A DNA stretch of 25,761 nucleotides from a virus, in the IMG/VR virus record IMGVR_UViG_3300005095_000153, positions 1-25,761 of that record; one strand, given 5' to 3'. Below the pieces are notes generated by a model, which worked only from the letters and a program-made list of their open reading frames with translations, was not told the DNA's origin and did no database searches. A program made the translations under genes and the position numbers. Of the stretch, positions 1 to 23,433 are shown in pieces. Position 1 is the stretch's first letter, and each line of letters starts with the position of its first letter.

Positions 1-2
1 GA

Positions 3-356
3 AAGGCGAACGGAAAGCTTGCCTATACCACATCTGAAGCTTCAGAGAAGAGTATGCTTTTAACAAAGGGGGTAGACGATATTCTTCCTTTCAAAAAGAC
101 AAAGAAAGTATGGACTCTTGAGCAACTAAAGGCACTTAAAAAAGAGGAGCTTACAGACAAATATGCAGATGTAGTTTTCGTTCTTCACACAGAGGGAGGG
201 GAGATTGTGACAAAAGAAAAAAAGGTATCTAGAAAGAACAAGAAAGGGGAAAAGAAAGTTCTTATAAAAACAAGATATACCATGGCGGACAATCTTCTTT
301 CAGCAAAGAGAAGTCTTATACAAAACAAAGGAAAGGTATTTGTAGAATACAGATAG
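3..356 (+). CDS. Partial internal-protein-like gene (5' end outside window)
   Basis: The frame is open to the left edge, so the start codon lies outside the window; the ATG at 54 is internal because readable codons continue upstream of it. The first visible residues contain YTTSEASEKS, followed by a basic beta-rich stretch ending KVFVEYR. The same pattern (FTTSEASEKS, about 35 residues, a Lys-rich strand, then a V/I-x-EY strand) occurs twice in the 549-residue protein at 11950-13599, so this is a third copy of that domain. The function is unknown. Because the longer paralogue begins with a candidate prohead-protease site, I infer a capsid-internal protein. The gene is on the plus strand and ends just before a GAAA-loop hairpin. 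It is Lys-rich and less AT-rich than the tail genes. Confidence 0.75.
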   Translation, partial: KANGKLAYTTSEASEKSMLLTKGVDDILPFKKTKKVWTLEQLKALKKEELTDKYADVVFVLHTEGGEIVTKEKKVSRKNKKGEKKVLIKTRYTMADNLLSAKRSLIQNKGKVFVEYR

Positions 357-364
357 TCTGAACA

Positions 365-380
365 GGGGGCGAAAGCCCCC
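365..380 (+). terminator. GGGGGC-GAAA-GCCCCC hairpin terminator
   Basis: A perfect 6-bp G+C stem closed by a GAAA tetraloop, 8 nt after the stop of the partial gene. No U-tract follows, so it could also be a 3'-end stability hairpin. The identical hairpin follows three other small genes in the window. Confidence 0.7.
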
Positions 381-402
381 ACCATCCAAACACAAAAACA
401 CA

Positions 403-503
403 TCTCCTAGGGCAACCTTGGCACCGTCCTTTAACGAAAGAAACTCGACCGACGCTTTGCCTGAATCGGATAAGATTTATATAAAGAACGGGCTTCCCTT
501 TAC
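403..503 (+). repeat. Dispersed ~100-bp repeat, copy 1
   Basis: One of four copies of a ~100-nt intergenic element (others at 3993-4092 plus, 13661-13760 minus, 20946-21045 plus). It begins TCTCCT, contains CTTTAACGAAAGAAACT, GACGCTTTGCCTGAATC and TTTATATAAAG, and ends in CGGGCTTCCCTTTAC. Copy 1 is nearly identical to copy 3. Copies 1 and 2 share a further ~40 nt to their left, including the GAAA-loop hairpin. The 357-645 gap around it otherwise holds the palindrome and promoter listed separately. Confidence 0.9.
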
Positions 504-518
504 AACCAATTCAACAAC

Positions 519-536
519 ATTGGTCATATGACCAAT
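519..536. promoter_or_regulatory. Perfect 18-bp palindrome, candidate operator
   Basis: ATTGGTCATATGACCAAT is its own reverse complement. Its right end overlaps the -35 region of the promoter at 536-565, the position expected for a dimeric repressor or activator. Half-sites TGACCA(A)T recur upstream of the promoters at 3530-3632 and at 10197-10209. Confidence 0.6.
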
Positions 537-565
537 TGTGCAAATATATGCCCTCGTGGTATACT
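536..565 (+). promoter_or_regulatory. Early-type promoter P1 (extended -10)
   Basis: TTGTGC, 18 nt, then TATACT preceded by CGTGG (extended -10). The block ATATATGCCCTCGTGGTAT is nearly the same as in the promoters at 3603-3632 and 3530-3559. It drives the gene at 646. A small hairpin (573-578 with 584-589) lies in the early transcribed region. Confidence 0.75.
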
Positions 566-613
566 AAAAGGAGAAAGGAAGAGCCTTTCTTAATAGAATA
601 GAGGGTGGGAGCA

Positions 614-649
614 ATGACGCAAACACCACAGTTTCAGGAGGAAACATGA
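614..649 (+). CDS. 11-residue leader ORF overlapping next start
   Basis: ATG ACG CAA... encodes MTQTPQFQEET and stops at a TGA that overlaps the ATG of the next gene (ATGA). It follows GGGTGGGAG, a possible weak ribosome site. The same 5' segment, AGAGGGTGGGAGCAATGACG, precedes the gene at 3685, where the leader reads MTQPHKLSGGQ and stays in frame with that gene. It may be a translated leader or simply conserved UTR sequence that contains an AUG. Confidence 0.35.
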   Translation: MTQTPQFQEET

Positions 650-984
650 GAAAATCACAAAAGAGAGATTTCACAAGAAAAGGGGACGCATCCATCATTG
701 CCAAGATATCATTGGATCTAAGTTGTCCGGTGGAGGAGATTGGGGAATATGTGGACATGGGCATGAAAAAGTTGGACAAAAACACAATTGCCCTTGCAAA
801 AAGGCTTGTGGAGAAGATTAAAGATGGAAAGATGGACGTTATATACACAGATGGGTGTTCAGAGTTCACTGGAGATTTTGAGTTTAAAGGAAAAAATCTA
901 GATACGTGGACTGCATACAAAGGTTCAAACAAGACCACAGTTTTTGTTTTCTATAGAGGAGAGCAAAATCCTGTAGAAGAATAG
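646..984 (+). CDS. Hypothetical early-type protein, 112 aa
   Basis: The ATG is preceded by AGGAGG at good spacing and lies downstream of P1. The product has a basic N-terminus (MRKSQKRDFTRKGD), a predicted helical middle (KKLDKNTIALAKRLVEKIKDGK) and a beta-rich C-terminal half ending in EQNPVEE. I recognise no catalytic motif and no transmembrane segment. A sampled 60-nt stretch is about 40% GC, higher than the surrounding minus-strand structural genes. With its own promoter and terminator it resembles an independent accessory (moron-like) unit. Confidence 0.8.
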   Translation: MRKSQKRDFTRKGDASIIAKISLDLSCPVEEIGEYVDMGMKKLDKNTIALAKRLVEKIKDGKMDVIYTDGCSEFTGDFEFKGKNLDTWTAYKGSNKTTVFVFYRGEQNPVEE

Positions 985-3632: not shown

Positions 3633-3684
3633 AGAATAGAGGGTGGGAGCAATGACGCAACCACACAAATTGTCAGGAGGACAA

Positions 3685-3970: not shown

Positions 3971-3992
3971 ACCGTCCAAACACAAAAACACG

Positions 3993-4092
3993 TCTCCTTG
4001 ACCAACCTTGGTACTGTCCTTTAACGAAAGAAACTTGACCAACGCTTTGTTCGAATCAATAGTGGTTTATATAAAGAACGGGCTTCTCTTTG
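3993..4092 (+). repeat. Dispersed ~100-bp repeat, copy 2
   Basis: Diverged copy of the element at 403-503: TCTCCT, CCAACCTTGGTACTG, CTTTAACGAAAGAAACTTGACC, then CGCTTTGTTCGAATCAATAGTGG, TTTATATAAAGAACGGGCTTCTCTTTG. In this copy TTGACC is followed after 25 nt by GTGG-TTTATAT, the same layout as TTGACC-N25-TATAAT at P2. It lies between the plus-strand cassette and the convergent tail-tube gene. Confidence 0.85.
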
Positions 4093-4100
4093 CAATGAAT

Positions 4101-7446: not shown

Positions 7447-8265
7447 TTACACTTTAGGAAGTTCTATGTGATATCCATTATTGAACAATTTTGCTCTATC
7501 TTCTATTGATGGATTAAAATTCATTGGATTGAATTGTTCCGGTATATCTATCACAACTGTTTTATCCCAATATGCTTGTGATAGATGCTTTTCATTTGCA
7601 CCCATATATAATAGATTCGCAAGTGTACCAATGTACTGGATGATATTACCAAGTTTACCTTTAGATTCATTTTTCGATTTAAACATAAACCCAATAATAT
7701 CATCGTCTTCATTAAAATATTTTATGTTATAGTTGGCTATCACACCCCCATCACAGTATATTCCACCGTTGTATTTAAACGGAACAAATATAATTGGTAT
7801 AGCACATGACGATGCAACAGCATCAACTATTTTCATATGTGGGGCGGTGTCGTTGGAGAATGTTTCAACCACCCCTTTTTTTAATTCAGTAACAGTACAT
7901 ACCAAATTCTTATTTAGGTCTCTGAATCTTATATTGGGATCGATCCCCTGACCTTTTATTATTGATTTTATTAATTTTCTCATATTATTCAGTGAATAAA
8001 AACCAAATTTAGTGAATATATTATACATTCCAAGTGGATTGTATATCGGCATTATTGATGTATAATCAGTGTGTAATATATCGTTTGTAAATTTATGTAA
8101 ATCAAACTCCAATGCTAATCCCATCGCAATAATAGATCCAAATGATGTACCAACAAATGTATCAACAGAATCAAAATCAAAATTCACATCCATCAATTTT
8201 TGTATGGTGCCACCCATGGATATACCAGCCATGGCTCCACCTTCAAATACGAGACCCTTTACCAT
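7447..8265 (-). CDS. Patatin-like phospholipase
   Basis: The 272-residue product starts MVKGLVFEGGAMAG; AAGGA lies upstream and its first 7 nt overlap the end of the gene before. It carries the complete patatin set: Gly-rich oxyanion loop (EGGAMAG, 8-14), nucleophile elbow GTSFG (39-43, Ser41), the conserved AVASSCAIPIIF helix (149-160) and the DGG motif with catalytic Asp172. Patatin-family enzymes hydrolyse acyl esters of membrane phospholipids through a Ser-Asp dyad. There is no signal peptide, so it acts in the cytoplasm or is carried in the virion. It is coupled to a gene whose product has a candidate prohead-protease site. Use in lysis or host takeover is inference only. Confidence 0.88.
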   Translation of the reverse strand: MVKGLVFEGGAMAGISMGGTIQKLMDVNFDFDSVDTFVGTSFGSIIAMGLALEFDLHKFTNDILHTDYTSIMPIYNPLGMYNIFTKFGFYSLNNMRKLIKSIIKGQGIDPNIRFRDLNKNLVCTVTELKKGVVETFSNDTAPHMKIVDAVASSCAIPIIFVPFKYNGGIYCDGGVIANYNIKYFNEDDDIIGFMFKSKNESKGKLGNIIQYIGTLANLLYMGANEKHLSQAYWDKTVVIDIPEQFNPMNFNPSIEDRAKLFNNGYHIELPKV

Positions 8266-8765
8266 TCCCAATCCTTCATACCATTACTTTCATGATATTT
8301 ATTTATGATGTTTAATCCTCTATCAGATAAAGTAAAATAAACATTTGTGCCATTTATATCAACAATCATGGATGTTCCAAGATTCAAATTTGAATCCATT
8401 TCAGCAATAAATTTATCAGGAGATTTTTTCATTAATCCCTTTACCACCATTAAATCATCAGATTCGTATAACGATAATGCACCAAGATGCATGTTAACAG
8501 TGTATTTATTGGTTGGATTAATATCCCATATTTTTTCAAGATAACTTTCTTTATCATGGATACCTTCACCCAATAAATAGTCTAATATTGCAAAATAGTT
8601 GCCTTCTTCAAATTTTATTTTACTTGTTGATGCATATTCATACATTTGATGTACAGTTGGATCTGTTTCGTCCAATGAATCATACATCCCATAATCTTCT
8701 TCTCTATAATCATCATCCAATGCTGTGTTGCCATAAAATGACTCATCTATTCTTTTAATACCCAT
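8259..8765 (-). CDS. Putative capsid-internal protein with N-terminal cleavage site
   Basis: 168 residues, with GGAGG 5 nt before the ATG. The N-terminus MGIKRIDESFYG contains IDE|S at 6-9, matching the prohead-protease consensus (hydrophobic-x-E, then small residue) and close in placement to the capsid-targeting peptide of T4 internal proteins. An acidic stretch follows (DDDYREEDYGMYDSLDE), then a helical body, with a C-terminal NVYFTLSDRGLNIINKYHE that looks like a winged-helix wing and helix. It ends overlapping the patatin gene. The function is unknown; packaging into the head is inferred from the motif. Confidence 0.65.
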   Translation of the reverse strand: MGIKRIDESFYGNTALDDDYREEDYGMYDSLDETDPTVHQMYEYASTSKIKFEEGNYFAILDYLLGEGIHDKESYLEKIWDINPTNKYTVNMHLGALSLYESDDLMVVKGLMKKSPDKFIAEMDSNLNLGTSMIVDINGTNVYFTLSDRGLNIINKYHESNGMKDWEW

Positions 8766-9150: not shown

Positions 9151-10116
9151 TTAGATAGGTTTGCCTTCTTCATTGAGTCCGGCTTCATTTATTGATATTG
9201 ATTCAGACAGTACATAATATTTAAGATATACATTCAAACCATTATAACTGGAATTAAGTGTGTCCACCATTGCAAGACCATATCTATCCGTTCCAACATA
9301 ATAATAATATTTGATTAATCTGTTATCCCTGTCCATTATTCCGTTTTCGTGATATATTATTGATAATCTATTTTCATCTAATTCAGGTCTTTCGGATGGT
9401 CTAAATATTCTTAAATGCATATTTGATTCCGATCTATTTTTTAAAACATACATCAAACCCTCAACAGCCTTCTTTGGATTATTATAAATGTAATGTTTTA
9501 ATATTTTATTGCTCTTTCTTATTGGTTTATCATCGCTATATATCATGTAATACATGTCGCCATCAGGTAATCCTTCACCAATCAATTTCTTCTTTTTAAT
9601 TTCCTTTAATTCACCACCAACTAATCTCAAACAGTTCCTACAAGTTGATACGGCATCATGTGATACTATAGATAAATTTGCTTTTGTACCACACAATGGA
9701 GACCCATCAAATGAATGCACCTCATGTATTAAACCTGATTTTGATTTTAGTTTGTGTTTTGATGCTATTGATAACTCATTTTCTTTTTCGTCAAGTAATG
9801 TGGTGTCAACAACCAATGGTGTAACCCCATATAGGACAACATTACCGTGATTATCAACTAAATTTATAATGTTTCTATTGATTCTTAAATGATGTTGATC
9901 TTCTCTGTAATTGTCAAGTAGATACTCAATCATGATGTCAACTTTATTGTAATCAAATGCACTACATGAATCTATCTTAATATCATTGGTATCATATATG
10001 CCCATTATGAATTTTCCATCACGATCGACTGTAATTGTTTCTTGTATTTTTGTTTTAAATTTTTTCTTAGATTTTATGCTTTTTATAAAATCATCTATGT
10101 CAGTTAATAATCCCAT
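9151..10116 (-). CDS. Zinc-motif protein, 321 aa, unknown function
   Basis: The start MGLLTDIDDFIKS is preceded by GGAGG, though only 3 nt away; an ATG 12 nt upstream has no ribosome site. Residues 131-163 read HEVHSFDGSPLCG...HDAVSTCRNCLRL, an H/C...C-x16-C-x2-C arrangement. It is typical of small zinc-binding modules found in phage and actinobacterial proteins of unknown function. The flanks look like repeated beta-hairpin domains. Near the C-terminus SINEAG (308-313) fits the prohead-protease consensus, so the last ten residues might be removed. It is transcribed from an early-type promoter (P4), unlike most neighbours. Confidence 0.7.
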   Translation of the reverse strand: MGLLTDIDDFIKSIKSKKKFKTKIQETITVDRDGKFIMGIYDTNDIKIDSCSAFDYNKVDIMIEYLLDNYREDQHHLRINRNIINLVDNHGNVVLYGVTPLVVDTTLLDEKENELSIASKHKLKSKSGLIHEVHSFDGSPLCGTKANLSIVSHDAVSTCRNCLRLVGGELKEIKKKKLIGEGLPDGDMYYMIYSDDKPIRKSNKILKHYIYNNPKKAVEGLMYVLKNRSESNMHLRIFRPSERPELDENRLSIIYHENGIMDRDNRLIKYYYYVGTDRYGLAMVDTLNSSYNGLNVYLKYYVLSESISINEAGLNEEGKPI

Positions 10117-10172
10117 AATCCTCCACATTCATATTGTTAACTAAATCGACAAGACCAAGCTTGTTCATCTAA

Positions 10173-10211: not shown

Positions 10212-11333
10212 TTACGATAGAATTACTGGTTCAAGTTTATAAAAGTCGGTTTTGATTATGGTATAAAACCCACTTCTTTTGTTTGCACTTACGTCATAAA
10301 AACCATGTACATCTGTGTGTTTATTCCATGCCTTAACTAATGCATCAACACCAAAACTTTCGCACAACTCTATTTGAAAATTTCTTACTTCACCATCACG
10401 TACCATCTTGGCAATATTAACCACATTTCTTCTTAATGAATCAATATCATCTTCAACAAATACATAATCTGTTGCCCAATAATAAAATTCAGTTGGATCG
10501 TGTTCAAGTAAACTTCTTAATATTTTTATTATCTGTGCCGTTCCAATAACATCATTCACACTGTCCGTTGCTGGTTTAAATTTGGTTTTATCTATATAAG
10601 TACTAACAACATGTTTACCATATTTCATTGCCGTATCAAGAGACCCAAAATATATGCCAATACCAAGTAGATTAAACCCACCAAGATTCATGTTTTTTGA
10701 TAATATTTTTGTTGTACCATGATTGTCACCATGAAACACCTGTTTATATCTACCACTATTTTTTGATTCATTAAATCTGGTTTTAACAACGGATTTTTTA
10801 TTGAACCTACCAGCTTTTTTACTCTCGTTAATTGAGTATGGTTCATTCAATTCAGTCCAACAGCTCTCTGGAGACCAATTATCAACAGAATTCTTAAATG
10901 ACTTATGATTATATCCGACAAACACATCATATCTGTTTATATCAACAACAACATATTTGGTCGTTTTACCATTGTTTTTATTCCACCAATCAACAACATA
11001 ATCGATTCTTGTTTCAAAACCAAGTGATTCAACCATATCATCGTCATCATATGTACTTAATTCGTTGTCCGGATCATCAATAACAATTAAATTTCCGGAT
11101 GCTATTAATCCTGCAACATGTGACATTAATTCAAACCCCATAGGATCTTGTCTGTAATTTCCACAATCTGTCATTGCGTATGAGTTTTGTTTGCTTAACA
11201 CATTAACAGCTCTCATATATGTTTTCTTGTTTGCTCTACCAATGTTTTTGAAACCACTCGATTCCGCCAATTGTATCCATAAAGCCATTGCTACAATGTC
11301 TCCCTTTGATATTTTGCTTAAGTTTAAGTCCAT
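10212..11333 (-). CDS. PARP-like ADP-ribosyltransferase with cleavable propiece
   Basis: 373 residues, AGGAGG before the ATG. The C-terminal half carries VFHGDNHG (199-206), then LLGIGIYFGSLDTAMKYG (222-239) and VVSTYID. This H-G...G-x-Y-F...A-x-x-Y arrangement is the NAD-binding core of H-Y-E (PARP/diphtheria-toxin type) ADP-ribosyltransferases. The third catalytic Glu is not obvious; the likely last strand reads SGFYTIIKTDFYKLEPV. Just before the domain are two sites resembling prohead-protease targets, SINE|S (170/171) and RFNE|S (189/190). Cleavage would release a ~184-residue enzyme from an unrecognised N-terminal domain. T4 also packages an ADP-ribosyltransferase (Alt), but of the R-S-E type. 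An injected host-modifying effector is inferred. Confidence 0.72.
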   Translation of the reverse strand: MDLNLSKISKGDIVAMALWIQLAESSGFKNIGRANKKTYMRAVNVLSKQNSYAMTDCGNYRQDPMGFELMSHVAGLIASGNLIVIDDPDNELSTYDDDDMVESLGFETRIDYVVDWWNKNNGKTTKYVVVDINRYDVFVGYNHKSFKNSVDNWSPESCWTELNEPYSINESKKAGRFNKKSVVKTRFNESKNSGRYKQVFHGDNHGTTKILSKNMNLGGFNLLGIGIYFGSLDTAMKYGKHVVSTYIDKTKFKPATDSVNDVIGTAQIIKILRSLLEHDPTEFYYWATDYVFVEDDIDSLRRNVVNIAKMVRDGEVRNFQIELCESFGVDALVKAWNKHTDVHGFYDVSANKRSGFYTIIKTDFYKLEPVILS

Positions 11334-11869: not shown

Positions 11870-11950
11870 TTAGTCAATACCCTCCAACATATTAACCAAC
11901 TCTTCAGCTCTATCCAAGAGTTGATCATAACTCATTTTATTAATATCCAT
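11870..11950 (-). CDS. 26-residue micro-protein
   Basis: The ATG overlaps the stop of the 549-residue gene (TAATG), with GGAG 6 nt before it. The product MDINKMSYDQLLDRAEELVN... is acidic and would form one amphipathic helix. The same TAATG coupling joins clear genes elsewhere (14836, 14168, 21215), which supports translation. The region between it and the 76-residue gene (11767-11869) holds only the late promoter at 11804. Confidence 0.5.
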   Translation of the reverse strand: MDINKMSYDQLLDRAEELVNMLEGID

Positions 11951-13599
11951 TATTTACTCCATGATTTTATAATGTCTGATAATTGATCATCATAGTTGTT
12001 AACCTTTCTCTCAAACATCATTGTTAGCTTCATCATTTCTTTTGCTTTACCTGAATCCAACCATTTATTAAGTCCTTTAAATACTTTCGAATTTTTATTA
12101 CCTTTCTCAGCAATATCCAATACCATATCAAACAGTTCTTTACCAACAGTTAATTTTTCAATGATATGACCAACATTAAATTGTGATTGTGTTGATACAA
12201 TCTTCTTTTTAGATACTTTTTTATTTGGTAATTGATGATCAGGATCTAGTACATGTTCTATTTTTTGTCTACCTAATTCATCGCCCTCTTTATAAATTCT
12301 CATATTAACAACTGTTTTACCTTCATTCTCATAAACATTTATGATCGCTTTTCTGAAAATATATCTGTATCTATAATTCGGTTTATAAATATCAACATAT
12401 GTCAACCCATTATCATCAGTGAAATCATATGATTCATCTAATTCAAAATAAATCCCCAATGCTTTTTCAAATCTTTTTCTTGAAATACTATGCACAGGCT
12501 TTATTGGTTTTGTTGATTCTTCTTGTATTTCAGACAAAAATCTGTTTTTGAATGTATCTGCATTTGATAATACTCTACTAAACAGTATTTTCTGTACATC
12601 ATTTGATATACCACCCTCAACAACTTCAAATTTATCATTGACTTTTTTAACTGATTCTGTTTTTATTTCTTTTTCTGGTAGATATTCAACTATTGCTAAT
12701 TCATCATTATGTAATAGTTTAAGAGACATTTTGGCTTTATTAAAATCAAAAAAGATGTAAAATTTTGTTTTATTAACTTTCCTACCCCTAATGTTTTTCT
12801 GAACAACTTTGAAATAAACTGTACCTCCACCATAACTTATTACATAGATACTATTTGGACTTTTTGCTGATGTAACTTCACCTTTTGGTTTATAAGCTAT
12901 AATCTCATCGGCTAAGGTTCTTATCATTGATTGTTCGCTTGATTTACTAGTTGTAAATGCTTTTTGACCTTTTGATTTTAATACGGGTTTACCCTTTATC
13001 ATTGCCAATCCAAGTCTAAAATCCAAATGCTTTCTTTCTTCATCAACTCTTGACATGGATGTAATAGGTTCATATGCCTCATTAACCAAATTGTATGCAA
13101 GACCTAGATGTGACACCAACGATCTAATATTCTTTTTATTTGTCCCAAATTCTTTATTTAATTCAAATAGATTGCCTGATATTTTCGTGAACCCATCATC
13201 AATGGTATACACCTTTTTATTTCTACCCTTTGACTTCCTATATGCACCAGTACTTGTATACTCAGTAACAATAAGCTTTTCTTCAAATTTTGAACCAAGT
13301 GATTTGACCATATTTCTTGCTATAGACATTGATTCATAAATGTAATATTTCTTTCTTTTTTTCTTTAATGTGGTAAATGGTGACATATCTTCTCTTGTTA
13401 TCACAAACAATGAATGCTCTCCACCTGTACCAATCTCCATAACAGCAATTTTATCAGCCATTAGTTTTAATGCCGATTTCTCACTTGCTTCACTAGTAGT
13501 GAATGAAAACCCACCACTTCTTTTATCAATTCTGCTATCACCAATTAATGGTACACCAAGTCTAAATTCGGTATTAAAAGCTTCATCAAACTTTTTCAT
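11950..13599 (-). CDS. Tandem-domain putative capsid-internal protein, 549 aa
   Basis: The start MKKFDEAFNTEFRLG is chosen for its GGAGG ribosome site; an upstream in-frame ATG has none. Two copies of one domain are visible: residues ~11-115 (FRLG..., FTTSEASEKSALKLMADKI, KKYYIYE, LIVTEY) and ~193-306 (FRLG..., FTTSKSSEQSMIRTLADEI, KFYIFFD, LAIVEY). Each copy is preceded by a candidate prohead-protease site: FDE|A at 6/7 and VNE|A at 174/175 (RVDE-E at 187/188 is weaker). LDE|S at 389/390 precedes a third, different C-terminal region. The gene at 3-356 carries the same domain. This reads as two internal proteins fused head to tail. Function unknown; Lys-rich character fits DNA contact inside the head. 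Confidence 0.7.
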   Translation of the reverse strand: MKKFDEAFNTEFRLGVPLIGDSRIDKRSGGFSFTTSEASEKSALKLMADKIAVMEIGTGGEHSLFVITREDMSPFTTLKKKRKKYYIYESMSIARNMVKSLGSKFEEKLIVTEYTSTGAYRKSKGRNKKVYTIDDGFTKISGNLFELNKEFGTNKKNIRSLVSHLGLAYNLVNEAYEPITSMSRVDEERKHLDFRLGLAMIKGKPVLKSKGQKAFTTSKSSEQSMIRTLADEIIAYKPKGEVTSAKSPNSIYVISYGGGTVYFKVVQKNIRGRKVNKTKFYIFFDFNKAKMSLKLLHNDELAIVEYLPEKEIKTESVKKVNDKFEVVEGGISNDVQKILFSRVLSNADTFKNRFLSEIQEESTKPIKPVHSISRKRFEKALGIYFELDESYDFTDDNGLTYVDIYKPNYRYRYIFRKAIINVYENEGKTVVNMRIYKEGDELGRQKIEHVLDPDHQLPNKKVSKKKIVSTQSQFNVGHIIEKLTVGKELFDMVLDIAEKGNKNSKVFKGLNKWLDSGKAKEMMKLTMMFERKVNNYDDQLSDIIKSWSK

Positions 13600-13626: not shown

Positions 13627-13634
13627 TATTTATA
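13627..13634 (-). promoter_or_regulatory. Late promoter, exact TATAAATA
   Basis: TATAAATA on the minus strand, 28 nt before the 549-residue gene, identical to the T4 late consensus. Confidence 0.75.
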
Positions 13635-13660
13635 TGTTTATTTACACCAAATGTTTTGTG

Positions 13661-13760
13661 CAAAGAGAAGCCCGTCCTTTATATAAATCTTATCCGATTC
13701 AGGCAAAGCGTCGGTCGAGTTTCTTTCGTTAAAGGAAAGTACCAAGGTTGCCCTAGGAGA
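13661..13760 (-). repeat. Dispersed ~100-bp repeat, copy 3 (inverted)
   Basis: The element of 403-503 in the opposite orientation; only about six differences from copy 1. It fills the gap between the 131-residue gene and the 549-residue gene and lacks the GAAA-loop hairpin found beside copies 1 and 2. Confidence 0.9.
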
Positions 13761-14168: not shown

Positions 14169-14836
14169 TATTCCTCCGTTGGTAAATATTCTTGTACAAA
14201 TGTTTTACCTATTATTCTTATTATTGAACTATAATTTATCTTTTCAATGGAAGCATTGAATATCCATACAGGTTCAACAGTTATTGTGAACGAAGCAAAT
14301 ATTATATCGTCATCTTGTTCTGATAAATCTTCTGCACCATCGTCTATTGACCCAAATTCATATACAAATCCTGTTGATACAGGTAACATGTCCAATATTG
14401 GATATTTCACATCTATTGATCTTTGTTGGTGATATAATAAATCGAGTTGTTCCATTATCATTAACATTGTTCTCATTTTACCTGTGCCGATTATACCATT
14501 AAATGTTAATCTTTTTGGTACGCCTGATAATAATTTATTACCTGTGTCCCTAAACTCTGCTTTATTGAGTTTGATCATATCTATTTCATCTATATCTTCA
14601 TATCCACCTGACATAGATAATGATATGGCTGGTAAAAAGTTTTGTATTCTGAAATTTTCATCATTTTTGCGTTCATCATAATATAACTTTGATAGAATAT
14701 CTTTTCTACCATTTGATAAACCAACTCTCAACTGTTTTCTATTACCTTCAAAATCATAATATCTGATATTATTGAATAAATCTTGTAATACGGCTGATGT
14801 AACAGTTTCTACAATAAAATTATAAGGTGCATTCAT
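14168..14836 (-). CDS. Tail sheath stabiliser/completion protein, gp15-like
   Basis: 222 residues. The N-terminus NFIVETVTSAVLQDLFNNIRYY leads to KQLRVGLSNGRKDILSKLY, then FLPAISLSMSGGYED, PKRLTFNGIIGTGKMRTMLMIMEQLDLLYHQQRSIDVKYP and a final ASFTITVEPVWIFNASI strand. This matches the order in T4 gp15: an 'RVPITYASKEHFM' strand, 'LPRINLHL', a 'P...Y.L.I.....D....VEQILPYF.P' helix and a 'W.LTFEV.GW..P' strand. Gp15 forms the hexamer that caps the tail and joins it to the neck. T4 gp15 is 272 residues. The start overlaps the stop of the lipoprotein gene (TAATG). Confidence 0.75.
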   Translation of the reverse strand: MNAPYNFIVETVTSAVLQDLFNNIRYYDFEGNRKQLRVGLSNGRKDILSKLYYDERKNDENFRIQNFLPAISLSMSGGYEDIDEIDMIKLNKAEFRDTGNKLLSGVPKRLTFNGIIGTGKMRTMLMIMEQLDLLYHQQRSIDVKYPILDMLPVSTGFVYEFGSIDDGAEDLSEQDDDIIFASFTITVEPVWIFNASIEKINYSSIIRIIGKTFVQEYLPTEE

Positions 14837-16548
14837 TATAGATCCTCACATGTTGAAATATCATTAACTTGAACAGATTTTTCCGTATTGTCATCAAATC
14901 TACTCAATACAACGTCGGTTTGGTCTATATCACCAGAAACACATATTTTTGTAACAGACAGATCAACAAAATATTCTGTTCCAACATGTGGTTCATGCAC
15001 CAGATAACCACCTATAAACGGAACCAATATATCTCTATTGTGTTTATCTTGTTCTAGTGATATTAAATCTAATTTAAAACCATCTGTTGTTACAACCATA
15101 CCATCCCCACCGTCTGATATACAATCTGTGCAACTGTCACCATAAACATACCCATGGTTTATTAATTTATGTTTATTGCCCGTAGTATCAATAGGTACAA
15201 ACAACACAACTCTTTTTTTGCTACCAAGGTCTGTTCTAAACGGCATACTGAACATATCTCCTGAATCATTAAATGATGTGGTATCTCTCCAACCCATGCT
15301 GTCACCATATCTATGTGTATGTATCTCATTATGTCCTGTTAGTGTAGCTGTAAGCATACCCATCCCATCATTAACAATGTTGATGTTTATAAATTTAAGT
15401 GTTTTGTCTGATGTGTTCCATATGACAACTATTGCATCTTCCTCCCATGCACCTGAACCATTATTAGTGTGGAATGCATGAGATGACATTATAATATCCC
15501 CTGATTTAAATGATACTCCAATTTCACTTTCTAGTCCAGAATTAACATAATCACTCATGGAGTTAACGGTGAGTTTATATGGTGCGTTATTATTGAAGTA
15601 AAACGTTGAGCGTACATCTTCACCATATGGAAATGAAGCAATTGCACCATGTAATTTATTGGATCTGTCTGCACCCGTGCCATCCGCACTATCTGTTATT
15701 GTTATAACTAAATTTGCACCTGATATATGGTCAAACACTATATCATGTACCGTCCCACCTGCTGACCCGTTTGAATGCAATGTTGCCGTGTGTTCAGATG
15801 AATGTTCACCATTATATCTAAATTCAAAATTTGACATATTAACTGTTTTTGTGTTTTCATGAACAAAATCAACTGATCCTGTGGTTGTTGAGTAAAAATA
15901 TGTGGACACAACGAACTTGTCGTTGTATATCCTTACCGTCCATATTCGTATATCCGTCTGTGTTGCATCATTTTGTGCTATCCATGTCCCTATGTATATT
16001 TTTGATGGTGAACCCGTTGTTGCACCACCATAACCAAGTGAATAGGGGTCAGTGAAATCCACACCCCCCTTCATGTTTTTAAACGATACATATATGGCTT
16101 CGGTGTTGTCTGACACACGCCTGCCAACAATGACATCTATTAATACGTCGTCTTTTTTGCTCTTATATGTTTTTGTGTCAAATGGGACGGTGAAATCACC
16201 ATGCACACCCTCTTGTTCACTAAGCATTGATTTATTTAACACTATTCCACGTGGATTTTTTATTACCATGTTGGTATGAATGTTTAAACCTAACATATTT
16301 GTTTTGAAATCAGAGTCATTAATACCTGATTGATTATGCCAATCCATATGTTCATTAAATTTTGTTAATGTATCAGGCATTGTATCCGCCAATATCAATT
16401 TTGTGTCATCAAATACTGTCATTTCATCTCCCTGTATATTATAGACAATTTCGTCATCTTGTCTTATTTCAGGTGTATTTAGTTGATTTGGCTCACCACA
16501 GCTTATTAGTATTAATATTGTGATTATTGTGATTATTGTGTGTTTCAT
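14836..16548 (-). CDS. Large predicted lipoprotein, 570 aa
   Basis: The ATG (MKHTIITIITILILISCGE) lies 5 nt after GGAGG. Residues 4-16 are hydrophobic and end in LISC, a fitting signal-peptidase-II lipobox with the lipidated Cys at 17. Gly at +2 allows outer-membrane sorting. The rest is beta-rich, with many Asn/Thr/Ser/Gly and acidic residues (e.g. SKIYIGTWIAQNDATQTDIRIW) and paired cysteines near the C-terminus (GDSCTDCISDGG). Such a protein would sit in the host envelope rather than the virion. Phage lipoproteins such as T5 Llp block superinfection, but those are small. It lies in the gp15-like operon, which is odd. Function unknown. Confidence 0.75.
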   Translation of the reverse strand: MKHTIITIITILILISCGEPNQLNTPEIRQDDEIVYNIQGDEMTVFDDTKLILADTMPDTLTKFNEHMDWHNQSGINDSDFKTNMLGLNIHTNMVIKNPRGIVLNKSMLSEQEGVHGDFTVPFDTKTYKSKKDDVLIDVIVGRRVSDNTEAIYVSFKNMKGGVDFTDPYSLGYGGATTGSPSKIYIGTWIAQNDATQTDIRIWTVRIYNDKFVVSTYFYSTTTGSVDFVHENTKTVNMSNFEFRYNGEHSSEHTATLHSNGSAGGTVHDIVFDHISGANLVITITDSADGTGADRSNKLHGAIASFPYGEDVRSTFYFNNNAPYKLTVNSMSDYVNSGLESEIGVSFKSGDIIMSSHAFHTNNGSGAWEEDAIVVIWNTSDKTLKFININIVNDGMGMLTATLTGHNEIHTHRYGDSMGWRDTTSFNDSGDMFSMPFRTDLGSKKRVVLFVPIDTTGNKHKLINHGYVYGDSCTDCISDGGDGMVVTTDGFKLDLISLEQDKHNRDILVPFIGGYLVHEPHVGTEYFVDLSVTKICVSGDIDQTDVVLSRFDDNTEKSVQVNDISTCEDL

Positions 16549-16588
16549 GATCACCTCCATTAAAACTGATGAAAAACGCTTCCATCAT

Positions 16589-16637: not shown

Positions 16638-17531
16638 TTATAGAACAACATACATTATAAATTCAAATGAATCTATATCTATACATTTAATGTTCCATTC
16701 CATACCACTTTTTTCTGCGTAGTCAATAACCTTTTTAAAATCACCACTGTATTTGTTACCGTGATTGAATACCCCTTTCAATAAATAGTTCCCTTCATTG
16801 AATACAACTTTTAGGGTGGTATTAAGTTTATCAACATCTTTATATAGTTTTGAAAGATATGTTGCTCTTTTTTGATCCTTTTTCATATGGAATTCCAAAA
16901 TAAACCCATCAACATCACGACCCTCTCCTTCATAGTCCACCATTGTTTCTTCAATAATATTCATCTCATACCCATAAATGTCTGTAAATACCGCCTTCCA
17001 TTTTGGTATGAATTTTTTATATTCATTAGGAAATGCACCATCTATAATGGTATATTCAATATACATTTTCATGCCAGTTTCTTTTTCAAGTTCATCAATC
17101 TCTCTTTGTATTCTCTTTCTATCCAATGCTTCATCAACTCTACCAAGTTTAGTTTCATTTTTTCTGGATTCATTTATTGAATGTCTTAATCTTGGCTTGG
17201 TCTTTGTCTTTGATTCATTAACTAAACCCAAAACAAGATTTAATTTTTTCATTATTTTTGTTAATGAGTATGTATCTTCAAGAAAACTTTCATCGACCAA
17301 ATCTTCAATGTGAACCCTTACAATACTACTTATTTGCATGGATATCTTCTTTCCACCAGCCAATTCAAATAACATTGTTGAATTACCATTTGTATCCCTA
17401 GATAATCCCCTAACATATACATCATTTGATATTTCAAGGGGTGAATCTAGTATAAATGCCTTTCCTTTTTTTAAATATCCCTTTCTACTCTCATTGAATC
17501 TTTTAAGAGTACCTTCTCTTTTAATTTCCAT
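16638..17531 (-). CDS. Polyprotein-like protein with clustered protease sites, 297 aa
   Basis: The start MEIKREGTLKRFNESRKG is chosen for GAAGGAG 6 nt upstream, but the frame stays open for about 75 more codons (see 17532-17772). Candidate prohead-protease sites occur at FNE|S (14/15), VDE|S (81/82), VNE|S (106/107), INE|S (121/122), VDE|A (134/135) and FNE|G (246/247). Full cutting would give a ~67-residue beta-rich peptide, several 13-25-residue basic peptides and a C-terminal domain of ~110-160 residues. The central part (KTKTKPRLRHSINESRKNETKLGR) is strongly basic. T4 scaffold and internal proteins are similarly processed, but this many sites in one product is unusual. No enzymatic motif is seen. 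Confidence 0.7.
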   Translation of the reverse strand: MEIKREGTLKRFNESRKGYLKKGKAFILDSPLEISNDVYVRGLSRDTNGNSTMLFELAGGKKISMQISSIVRVHIEDLVDESFLEDTYSLTKIMKKLNLVLGLVNESKTKTKPRLRHSINESRKNETKLGRVDEALDRKRIQREIDELEKETGMKMYIEYTIIDGAFPNEYKKFIPKWKAVFTDIYGYEMNIIEETMVDYEGEGRDVDGFILEFHMKKDQKRATYLSKLYKDVDKLNTTLKVVFNEGNYLLKGVFNHGNKYSGDFKKVIDYAEKSGMEWNIKCIDIDSFEFIMYVVL

Positions 17532-20929: not shown

Positions 20930-20945
20930 CGATTGCTCCTTAGTG

Positions 20946-21045
20946 TCTCCTTGACTTCCCTTGGTATCACCCTTTAACAAAAGAAACTTGACCGACGCTT
21001 TGCCTGAATCAAATAAGATTTATATAAAGGACGGGCTTTTCTTTA
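20946..21045 (+). repeat. Dispersed ~100-bp repeat, copy 4
   Basis: Most diverged copy: TCTCCT at the left, CTTTAACAAAAGAAACTTGACC, GACGCTTTGCCTGAATC, TTTATATAAAGGACGGGCTTTTCTTTAC at the right. It occupies the space between the 55-residue gene and the spike gene. Read on the minus strand it contains TATAAATC, which could serve as a late promoter for the spike gene. Confidence 0.85.
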
Positions 21046-21047
21046 CA

Positions 21048-21215
21048 CTATAATTTATCCAGTAGATTTCTACTTGCCACAATGTTTGTTTTTTTAATAA
21101 AATTTTTTAACTCAATAACAGAATTTATCTGTATTTCATCATCATACTTTCCTATTAACGATAAAAACCTTTTATATTCAACTATCAATGCTTTTACTTC
21201 TTCTTTTAAATCCAT
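21048..21215 (-). CDS. Small protein after portal, 55 aa (gp67 position)
   Basis: The ATG overlaps the portal stop (TAATG) with AGGAGG 4 nt before it. The product MDLKEEVKALIVEYKRFLSL... is helical and charged and ends ASRNLLDKL. In T4 the gene directly after the portal encodes gp67, a small helical prohead core protein, so a core or scaffold role is possible by position. The sequence is too short to confirm. Its stop lies 3 nt from repeat copy 4. Confidence 0.65.
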   Translation of the reverse strand: MDLKEEVKALIVEYKRFLSLIGKYDDEIQINSVIELKNFIKKTNIVASRNLLDKL

Positions 21216-22675
21216 TAGTCCTCCTTCTCAACAAACCACCAATAACCCTCTTTGGATTCTTTTATTATTTGTTTTTTAGTTTTCTTTATATCGTCCTCGG
21301 TGAGTCCAAATAATCCAGACAGCACCTGTTTAACTGAAACCAATGGAAATCTATCTGGTTCCTCTTCTGTAGGCATACCCATTATTGGCTTTAATTCATC
21401 AAGTGTTTCAGCCATTAATTTATATTTTGTGTATTTCAAAACTCTTTCTATATGTTCGTCTTCAGAAAATTCAAATGTAATAAATGATTTCATTTCATCT
21501 ATTTCTTTTTGTTTGATCCCACTTTCAAGCATATGATCAATGAACATTTGTTTGTTTATAAATGAAAATCTATACCTTAATTTCATATAATATCTTCTGA
21601 AATCTCTTTCGTCTTGAGTCATTTCTTCGATATTATCACCAACTTTTATATCACCACCACCATCATCTGAATCCATTAATGATTTTGGTATTTGCATTGA
21701 ATTATTTAGATCATTAACAAACATGTTAACATCTTCTATGTCAGACACATTGACATCACCACCAACTGTATCTAGTTCTGTATTTTTATCACCATGTCTA
21801 CTAAACCAAAAATTTTCAGACATGAGCATTTGACTTGCATTTGCCACTAATGTATCACCATCAAAAAACCTTTCTAAATTATATTCATTTTTATATCTGT
21901 TTATCAAGGAATATGCTGTATCAGGATCCATTGTCCCAACATCTATGTAAATAGCATATCTTAATGGTGCACGTACAACTCTGTGTATCAATAATGCATT
22001 CTTTAACATATTAAGCTCATAGGCGGCTTTCATGGAGTCATGTAAAAATGATACCGGTGTTATACCATCATATTCGCCTGATGTAGCATATATAATATCA
22101 TCATTATCCACCTCTATGAATTTTTTTGCTTCAAAATCGTATGCTTCCCAGATATATGACGTTCTATCCGATGATATTTTCTTTCTTATATTATATGGGT
22201 GCAATATATCATAGTTGATAATTTTCTTTTTATCATCTCTTATTTTCCTTATATACATTCTTCCATCAATGAACCACTGTCTGAACATTGCTTCAACATC
22301 ATCATTTAAATCATCCATTTTTGTTAGATATTCTTTATATGATTTGTAATATTTTTCCAGATTAGAATCACTTATAGTGTGTGGTTCCCTGAACTTTAGT
22401 TTCATTATGGCATCGGTGTATGTATTGACTATAACATGGTTGACTATTTTTCTGATTCTAGTTGAAACATCCGTGAATGTAGCCATGGTTCTGTATCTCA
22501 ATATAAGTTCTTTGTCATCGAAGTACTCATAATATTTTATGTTGCTATATGATCTGTTTGAGACACCACCCCCACCACCATTAAGCATATTGTCATAATC
22601 AGAACGAATTTCCACACCCTCATCAATTCTTTTTGTTTCTGTAGCTATATCATTTCCATTTCTGGTAAATTTCAT
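21215..22675 (-). CDS. Portal protein, gp20-like
   Basis: 486 residues. The start MKFTRNGNDIATETKRIDEG is chosen because GGGAGG lies 7 nt upstream and the ATG overlaps the stop of the metallophosphoesterase gene (ATGA). Diagnostic stretches are FTDVSTRIRKIVNHVIVN, YDILHPYNIRKKI, a VRAPLRYAIYIDVGTMDPDTAYSLINRYKNEY segment (T4 gp20: 'FYIDVGNLPK.KAEQYM..IM.RYKN'), EMTQDERDFRRYYMKLRYRF and a C-terminal helix. The portal dodecamer sits at the head vertex and passes DNA. T4 gp20 is 524 residues. RIDE|G at 17-20 fits the prohead-protease pattern, so the first 19 residues may be trimmed. Confidence 0.9.
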   Translation of the reverse strand: MKFTRNGNDIATETKRIDEGVEIRSDYDNMLNGGGGGVSNRSYSNIKYYEYFDDKELILRYRTMATFTDVSTRIRKIVNHVIVNTYTDAIMKLKFREPHTISDSNLEKYYKSYKEYLTKMDDLNDDVEAMFRQWFIDGRMYIRKIRDDKKKIINYDILHPYNIRKKISSDRTSYIWEAYDFEAKKFIEVDNDDIIYATSGEYDGITPVSFLHDSMKAAYELNMLKNALLIHRVVRAPLRYAIYIDVGTMDPDTAYSLINRYKNEYNLERFFDGDTLVANASQMLMSENFWFSRHGDKNTELDTVGGDVNVSDIEDVNMFVNDLNNSMQIPKSLMDSDDGGGDIKVGDNIEEMTQDERDFRRYYMKLRYRFSFINKQMFIDHMLESGIKQKEIDEMKSFITFEFSEDEHIERVLKYTKYKLMAETLDELKPIMGMPTEEEPDRFPLVSVKQVLSGLFGLTEDDIKKTKKQIIKESKEGYWWFVEKED

Positions 22676-23433
22676 TTCCATCCCTCCCATCTAAGTGTTA
22701 CTTTTTTCTCACCATTAATGTATTCTATTAACGCCACCCCAAATCTTGATTCTTTACCACTGGTTGAGCCACCATTAACGAACGTTATATTGTTTTTTAT
22801 TTTCTTTCCTAGATACATATGTTTATGACCATACAAAACCAATCCGACGTTTGTATCTTTTATTGTGTCCATGAACATTTTGCTATCTTCCAACTCCATT
22901 GTTTTTTCACTAAACCATTTCCATATTTTCCACCATTTATGTCTGTGTTTGAATGGATGATGGTGCATATATATTATGGTGTCAGTGAATGTTTTATTCT
23001 TTTTAACTATACCTCTTAGATCAATTATTTGTTTTAATCCTATCTCACCACTAGCAAAAAATCTTGCATTTGCCGTGTTTATACCAACGAATCTATATCC
23101 ATCTATTACAGTTTCTATTGGATATCCACCAACACCAAAAACAGTATTAAATCTATTGATACATTCACCACATCTAGTGAATCCGTTTCCCATTATTCTC
23201 AAATAGTCATGATTTCCGGCAACAAATAATATATCCTTTGCCCTAGCTATTAACCCAAATAAACCCAACGCTAATCTTGTATCATGTTCACTAGATGTAT
23301 CGGTAAGGTCACCTGTAACAACAACCACGTATTCATTTAAATCTTTTAATTTTGACAGTGATTTAAACAACACCAATAATTTTTCATGATTTTCATCATT
23401 AACATGTAAATCTGACATATGCAATATTTTCAT
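22672..23433 (-). CDS. Calcineurin-like metallophosphoesterase
   Basis: 253 residues, GGAGG 5 nt before the ATG. All family motifs are intact: MSDLH (6-10; metal ligands Asp8 and His10), TGDLTD (40-45), AGNHD (72-76), HHHP (157-160) and YGHKH (201-205). The two-metal centre hydrolyses phosphodiesters or phosphomonoesters. The order fits the Icc/CpdA-type branch, which acts on cyclic nucleotides and related substrates, rather than SbcD nucleases. The substrate cannot be read from the sequence; nucleotide second messengers made by host defence are one possibility. It lies between a lytic transglycosylase and the portal and has its own late promoter. Confidence 0.93.
   Translation of the reverse strand: MKILHMSDLHVNDENHEKLLVLFKSLSKLKDLNEYVVVVTGDLTDTSSEHDTRLALGLFGLIARAKDILFVAGNHDYLRIMGNGFTRCGECINRFNTVFGVGGYPIETVIDGYRFVGINTANARFFASGEIGLKQIIDLRGIVKKNKTFTDTIIYMHHHPFKHRHKWWKIWKWFSEKTMELEDSKMFMDTIKDTNVGLVLYGHKHMYLGKKIKNNITFVNGGSTSGKESRFGVALIEYINGEKKVTLRWEGWK

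What the first reader, a model, noticed from the sequence alone, without database searches (positions are those of the whole stretch)
11950..13599. Tandem duplicated domain, each copy with its own leader-like cleavage site, and a third copy at the window's left edge
Residues 11-115 and 193-306 share the FRLG...TTS(E/K)xSE(K/Q)S...L(A/M)D(E/K)I...(V/I)xEY framework. Each copy is preceded by a short K/R-containing segment with a candidate protease site. The plus-strand partial gene at 3-356 carries YTTSEASEKS and the same following pattern, about 12 kb away on the other strand. This is an unnamed paralogous family that appears to spread within the phage by duplication and fusion.
Basis: partly seen in the sequence, partly recalled or inferred. 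Interest (0 to 1): 0.7.

Follow-up and report, generated by a model that had tools for sequence, protein, structure and literature searches.

The report
Duplicated phage domain, probably packaged in head
A T4-like phage known only from a metagenome carries a protein domain with no known relatives in at least five diverged copies, two of them in one late protein with likely capsid-protease cut sites between them, which suggests a precursor that is cut up inside the virus head and injected into the next host.

Summary
The two segments of ORF 11950-13599(-) and the left-edge segment are homologous: local scores lie 12.5, 11.5 and 4.4 SD above shuffles, with 0 of 1000 shuffles reaching any of them. 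A sister contig from the same metagenome completes the left-edge gene and adds two more members, giving five copies in four genes. No relative was found among 50,697 phage records, IMG/VR, GTDB genomes, Pfam, PHROGs, NCBIfam or PDB. The fold could not be determined (pLDDT 50).

The 'leader-like sites' resemble the Glu-specific prohead-protease motif of T4 (L/I-X-E). They have the form [FIVL]-[ND]-E|[AS] and fall at residues 6, 174, (187) and 389, all outside the two domains. The same motif is strongly enriched in unrelated neighbouring late genes and absent from the tail, portal and baseplate genes and from the other family copies. So the sites are a feature of a packaged-protein set, not of the domain.

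The ORF has a perfect TATAAATA late promoter. The left-edge gene and the coiled-coil paralog have sigma70-like early promoters. Best reading: an internal-head (ejected) polyprotein plus early-expressed paralogs, comparable to T4 Alt versus ModA/ModB. Cleavage, packaging and biochemical function are inferred, not shown.

The parts
11950..13599 (-). Late gene 'P', 549 aa, pI about 9.6: domain A, linker, domain B, C-terminal region
   Evidence: ORF, GGAGG Shine-Dalgarno and late promoter; pI
13255..13569 (-). Domain copy A (residues 11-115)
   Evidence: Homologous to B and to the left-edge copy
12682..13023 (-). Domain copy B (residues 193-306)
13579..13590 (-). Candidate prohead-protease site FDE|A (residues 4-7) in an N-terminal MKKFDE|AF segment
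   Evidence: Motif scan; T4 gp21 motif L/I-X-E (PMC9026906)
13075..13086 (-). Candidate site VNE|A (residues 172-175) between A and B
13036..13047 (-). Candidate second linker site VDE|E (residues 185-188), weaker (P1' Glu)
   Evidence: Read directly from the sequence; position
12430..12441 (-). Candidate site LDE|S (residues 387-390) in the C-terminal region
11953..12681 (-). C-terminal region (residues 307-549) without detectable relatives
13627..13634 (-). TATAAATA late promoter of P
   Evidence: TAAATA stands upstream of 10 of 24 minus-strand genes against 2.0 expected, 1 on the opposite strand; gp55-like late sigma in the window
3..356 (+). 3' part of family gene 'E' (213 aa when completed from the sister contig)
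   Evidence: Window 1-85 = L003 9999-10083 at 100%; reading
16638..17531 (-). Neighbouring late gene 'X' without the domain; five candidate sites (FNE|S, VDE|S, VNE|S, INE|S, VDE|A)
   Evidence: 5 observed, 0.08 expected
10212..11333 (-). Neighbouring gene: N-terminal region, linker with INE|S and FNE|S, then a C-terminal domain that resembles ADP-ribosyltransferases by eye only
   Evidence: 2 observed, 0.10 expected, P 0.004; no database match
8259..8765 (-). Neighbouring gene with an N-terminal KRIDE|SF site
   Evidence: P 0.07 on its own
9151..10128 (-). Neighbouring gene with INE|A near its C-terminus
   Evidence: P 0.08 on its own

Best explanation
ORF 11950-13599 is a late-expressed precursor of internal (ejected) head proteins of a T4-superfamily phage. 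Shown: two diverged copies of one domain, further copies elsewhere in the lineage, a late promoter, a basic product, and Glu-type motifs lying only outside the two domains. Inferred: the N-terminal MKKFDE segment acts as a capsid-targeting sequence that takes the protein into the prohead core; the phage's gp21-like protease then cuts after Glu at FDE|, VNE|, (VDE|) and LDE|, releasing a mature A fragment (about 18.9 kDa), a B fragment (about 23-25 kDa) and a C-terminal fragment (about 18.8 kDa); these basic pieces are packed with the DNA and injected. Early-promoter paralogs (the left-edge gene and L002 1010-1657) make more of the same domain once infection starts, as T4 does with packaged Alt and early ModA/ModB. 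The domain therefore most likely acts in the host cytoplasm at the start of infection, on nucleic acid or a host protein. Its target is unknown.
For: Homology of the copies. Strict motif [ILVFM][ND]E[AS]: 12 sites against 0.50 expected in five late genes (P, X, 10212, 9151, 8259), none in sheath, baseplate, portal or tube genes nor in family copies E, F, G. The four P sites fall outside both domains. T4 gp21 cuts after L/I-X-E, and short N-terminal capsid-targeting propeptides carry varied proteins into the head (PMC9026906). T4-superfamily portal, sheath, baseplate wedge, tube, terminase and gp55. Late promoter for P; sigma70-like TATAAT promoters before E and F. P has pI 9.6, while most tail and head-shell proteins are at 4.2-5. 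[quoted passage not shown]
Against: The prohead protease, scaffold and major capsid protein lie in neither contig, so the cleavage specificity of this phage is unverified. The motif is short. Copy G sits in a late tail operon (between gp25 and a tail tube gene) without any site, and F (pI 5.1) and G (6.5) are not basic, so packaging and charge are not constant in the family. No proteomics exist. The fold is unresolved (pLDDT 50).
Confidence: 0.55

Rival explanations
1. P is a packaged, ejected internal head protein that loses only its short N-terminal propeptide (FDE|A) and stays one two-domain chain; the linker motifs are not cut.
For: The N-terminal site fits T4 capsid-targeting sequences, which are 10-20 residue N-terminal propeptides. 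The linker site VDE|E has a non-canonical P1' residue.
Against: Linker motifs recur in X (three in about 30 residues) and in 10212-11333 (two in about 20 residues), in what look like interdomain linkers. Several cuts in one protein are known in giant phages (PMC10052503).
Confidence: 0.22
2. P is a non-virion late protein, or a tail/assembly accessory; the Glu motifs are linker composition and the domain is a generic protein- or nucleic-acid-binding module.
For: P lies among tail genes. Paralog G sits in a late tail operon without any site.
Against: The motif excess is confined to one gene set; other long acidic late proteins (sheath, portal, gp6) have none.
Confidence: 0.18
3. The similarity is convergence of low-complexity K-rich sequence, not homology.
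For: Some members are lysine-rich, and identity is only about 25-35%.
Against: Composition-preserving shuffles never reach the scores; leave-one-out profiles recover members at 4e-11 and 1.5e-8; F and G are not basic yet keep the (S/T)TS(E/D)AS motif.
Confidence: 0.03

Closest known systems
T4 internal proteins IPI-IPIII and their capsid-targeting sequence
   Same: Late, basic, short N-terminal segment ending in a Glu cleavage motif; a modular way to load varied proteins into the head (PMC9026906)
   Different: No sequence relation found; here two domains and further candidate sites in one chain, and early-expressed paralogs of the same domain
T4 Alt versus ModA/ModB
   Same: A packaged, injected family member alongside early-expressed paralogs (PMC5512222)
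   Different: The domain is not an ADP-ribosyltransferase by any search; no catalytic signature recognised
Head paralog families A and B of giant phages (SPN3US, PhiKZ)
   Same: Paralogous head families of variable copy number; family A members are processed by the prohead protease (PMC5694885)
   Different: Separate genes there; cleavage motif AXE in SPN3US; no sequence relation found
Polyvalent proteins of phages (e.g. P1 DarA/DdrB)
   Same: Multidomain proteins packaged, in some cases processed, and injected (PMC5512222)
   Different: Those join unlike enzymatic domains; P joins two copies of one domain, with no known enzymatic domain found

Membership tests
T4-like internal head (CTS-bearing) proteins | N-terminal segment of about 10-20 aa ending in a prohead-protease Glu motif | tested here: inconclusive
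   MKKFDE|AF at residues 1-8: P1 Glu and a hydrophobic P3, but Phe rather than the L/I of T4, and a segment of 6 rather than 10-20 residues
T4-like internal head (CTS-bearing) proteins | Late expression | tested here: met
   TATAAATA 27 nt before the ATG; TAAATA enriched before late genes; gp55 homologue present
T4-like internal head (CTS-bearing) proteins | Basic product | tested here: met
   pI 9.6; predicted fragments 9.3-9.7
T4-like internal head (CTS-bearing) proteins | Present and cleaved in the virion, injected | not testable with these tools
   Needs proteomics; no isolate
T4-like internal head (CTS-bearing) proteins | A gp21-type protease with matching specificity in the same genome | not testable with these tools
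   The window is a 25.8-kb fragment; protease and major capsid protein are in neither contig
Giant-phage head paralog families (PF12699 type) | Sequence membership | tested here: not met
   No Pfam match to P, the left-edge copy or other family members that bears on this family
Alt/Mod ADP-ribosyltransferases | ART domain | tested here: not met
   No Pfam, PHROG, NCBIfam or PDB match for P or the domain

The most novel reading that the evidence does not exclude
A phage head-maturation polyprotein: one late gene carries several copies of an injected effector domain that the prohead protease cuts apart inside the capsid, while the same domain is also made as separate early proteins. One domain would thus be delivered both with the DNA and by early transcription.
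Probability: 0.4. Interest if true: 0.65.

Novelty: new variant of a known kind. Interest (0 to 1): 0.45.

Why it matters
If true, it gives a protein domain family with no known relatives a likely place of action (injected at infection) and a simple route by which a phage enlarges its injected arsenal: duplicate a domain, join the copies, and separate them with capsid-protease sites. It also suggests a genome-reading rule: late genes rich in [FIVL][ND]E|[AS] linkers mark ejected proteins in uncultured T4-like phages.

Tried and rejected
Relatives elsewhere: tblastn of P, F and G against phages gave none. Viral-contig scans with P, alignment A1, the portal, the terminase and three DNA patterns returned only the sister contig or chance motif hits. 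GTDB genomes gave none, and the alignment was too divergent to scan there. Pfam, PHROG and NCBIfam gave nothing significant bearing on the domain (the Rod_CreS hit at 0.002 is taken to be the coiled coil of F). PDB by sequence gave none. Structure: two AlphaFold jobs at pLDDT 39 and 50; Foldseek gave no match at E <= 0.001, so no fold is claimed. Internal half-repeat of the domain (beta-alpha-beta twice): suggested by eye and by the poor model, not supported by profile comparison. Homology of the P linker to the linkers of X and of 10212-11333: not significant (P 0.17 and 0.22), so the shared motif is not explained by detectable common descent of the linkers. TATAAATA over the whole window is not enriched (6 against 6.3); only its placement before genes is.

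Full report
Setting. The window is a 25.8-kb IMG/VR virus fragment. PHROG and Pfam profiles identify a T4-superfamily portal, sheath, baseplate wedge (gp6-like), head-tail adaptor, tail tube, sheath stabiliser and gp55-like late sigma factor. Identity to named phages is low: portal 24-29%, terminase of the sister contig about 31%.

Observation. Their local alignment scores 101 against 31 +/- 5.6 for shuffles. B against the left-edge segment scores 97 and A against it 57; none of 1000 shuffles reached any of these. The duplication and the third copy are real.

The family is larger. A scan with the three segments found contig IMGVR_UViG_3300005095_000195 (16.7 kb). It carries T4-type terminase, DnaB helicase, gp25 and a tail tube gene. 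Its ends lie inside the left-edge gene: window 1-85 is identical to one end, and window 89-652 is 94% identical to the other. Joining across the 85-base overlap gives a 213-aa protein E, 'MAKIEMKK...FRLGVALDKKG...YTTSEASEKS...FVEYR'. The join could mix two strains or two copies. The contig also encodes F (L002 1010-1657, 215 aa, with a coiled-coil insert in the domain) and G (L003 6943-7722, with the domain at its C-terminus). A five-member profile finds all of them; with one left out, E returns at 4e-11, F at 1.5e-8 and G at 0.15; G and F match each other at 1e-6. G is therefore the least certain member. A, B and E share the FRLG entry; F and G keep (S/T)TS(E/D)AS and the C-terminal part. B scores about equally against E and A, so A and B need not be each other's nearest relatives. 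Nothing related was found in any other collection searched.

The protease sites. The residues that recur are [FIVL]-[ND]-E followed by A or S: FDE|AF (residue 6), VNE|AY (174), LDE|SY (389), plus VDE|ER (187). This resembles the T4 prohead protease, which cuts after L/I-X-E (PMC9026906). In shuffles of the same proteins the strict motif is expected 0.16 times in P (3 seen), 0.08 in X (5 seen) and 0.10 in 10212-11333 (2 seen), with one each in 8259-8765 (residue 6) and 9151-10128; the sheath (831 aa), gp6-like protein, portal and other structural proteins have none, and neither do E, F and G. The linkers are not significantly similar otherwise. The sites therefore belong to a set of late genes, not to the duplicated domain. 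(and one search count residues from one codon upstream of the ATG, so their numbers for P are one higher than those given here.)

Expression. P has TATAAATA 27 nt before its ATG. TAAATA lies in the upstream window of 10 of 24 minus-strand genes (2.0 expected; 1 on the opposite strand), which together with the gp55 homologue indicates T4-type late promoters. E is preceded by a TTGTGC...TATAAT promoter and a strong AGGAGG. F is preceded by a GTGGTATAAT promoter. E and F thus look early, P late, and G lies in a late operon.

Mechanism. Shown: the copies, the motif placement, the promoters, the charge. Inferred: prohead targeting, cutting, packaging, injection. The closest working parallels are the T4 internal proteins (targeting and cutting), Alt versus ModA/ModB (packaged against early paralogs) and the head paralog families of giant phages. 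In the papers read, propeptides are removed by one or several cuts. I found no paper describing repeated copies of one internal-protein domain separated by such sites, but the library is partial.

Limits. Fold, target and cleavage are unknown. Two AlphaFold models were poor (39 and 50 pLDDT) and fold searches gave nothing at E <= 0.001. The protease and capsid genes of this phage are not in hand.

Noticed in passing
window 403-504(+), 3992-4094(+), 13659-13760(-), 20945-21048(+); L002 314-415, 8243-8344: A dispersed intergenic repeat of about 100 nt, 83-94% alike between copies with almost no indels, on both strands and in differing relation to the neighbouring genes. No Rfam family; predicted RNA fold no better than shuffles and no covariation, so more likely a DNA element.
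   Followed up: partly
window 597-621, 3635-3659; L002 and L003 upstream regions: A recurring leader of early-type genes: TATAAT/TATACT promoter, AATAGAGGGTGGGAGCAATGACGCA, then TCAGGAGGAAACATG.
   Followed up: partly
window 7447-8271(-): Patatin-like phospholipase (PF01734, 1e-28) with GGxxxG, GxSxG and DGG motifs among tail genes; weak similarity to the CBASS lipase model.
   Followed up: no
window 14836-16560(-): A 574-aa late-region protein with a lipoprotein-like signal and lipobox (ILILISC), which suggests a lipoprotein of the infected cell envelope.
   Followed up: no
window 10212-11333(-): The C-terminal domain after the FNE|S site has 'FHGDNHGTT...GIGIYFGS', which looks like an ADP-ribosyltransferase by eye; no database supports it.
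   Followed up: partly
window 21215-22690(-), residues 22-25: The portal N-terminus carries KRIDE|G, close to the KRIDE|S of 8259-8765; the portal might be processed, as in giant phages but not in T4 (PMC5694885).
   Followed up: no
IMGVR_UViG_3300005095_000195 ends: The contig begins and ends inside the same gene E with a 3-nt gap, and both ends match the window's left edge (100% and 94%); assembly break at strain variants or at two copies of E.
   Followed up: partly
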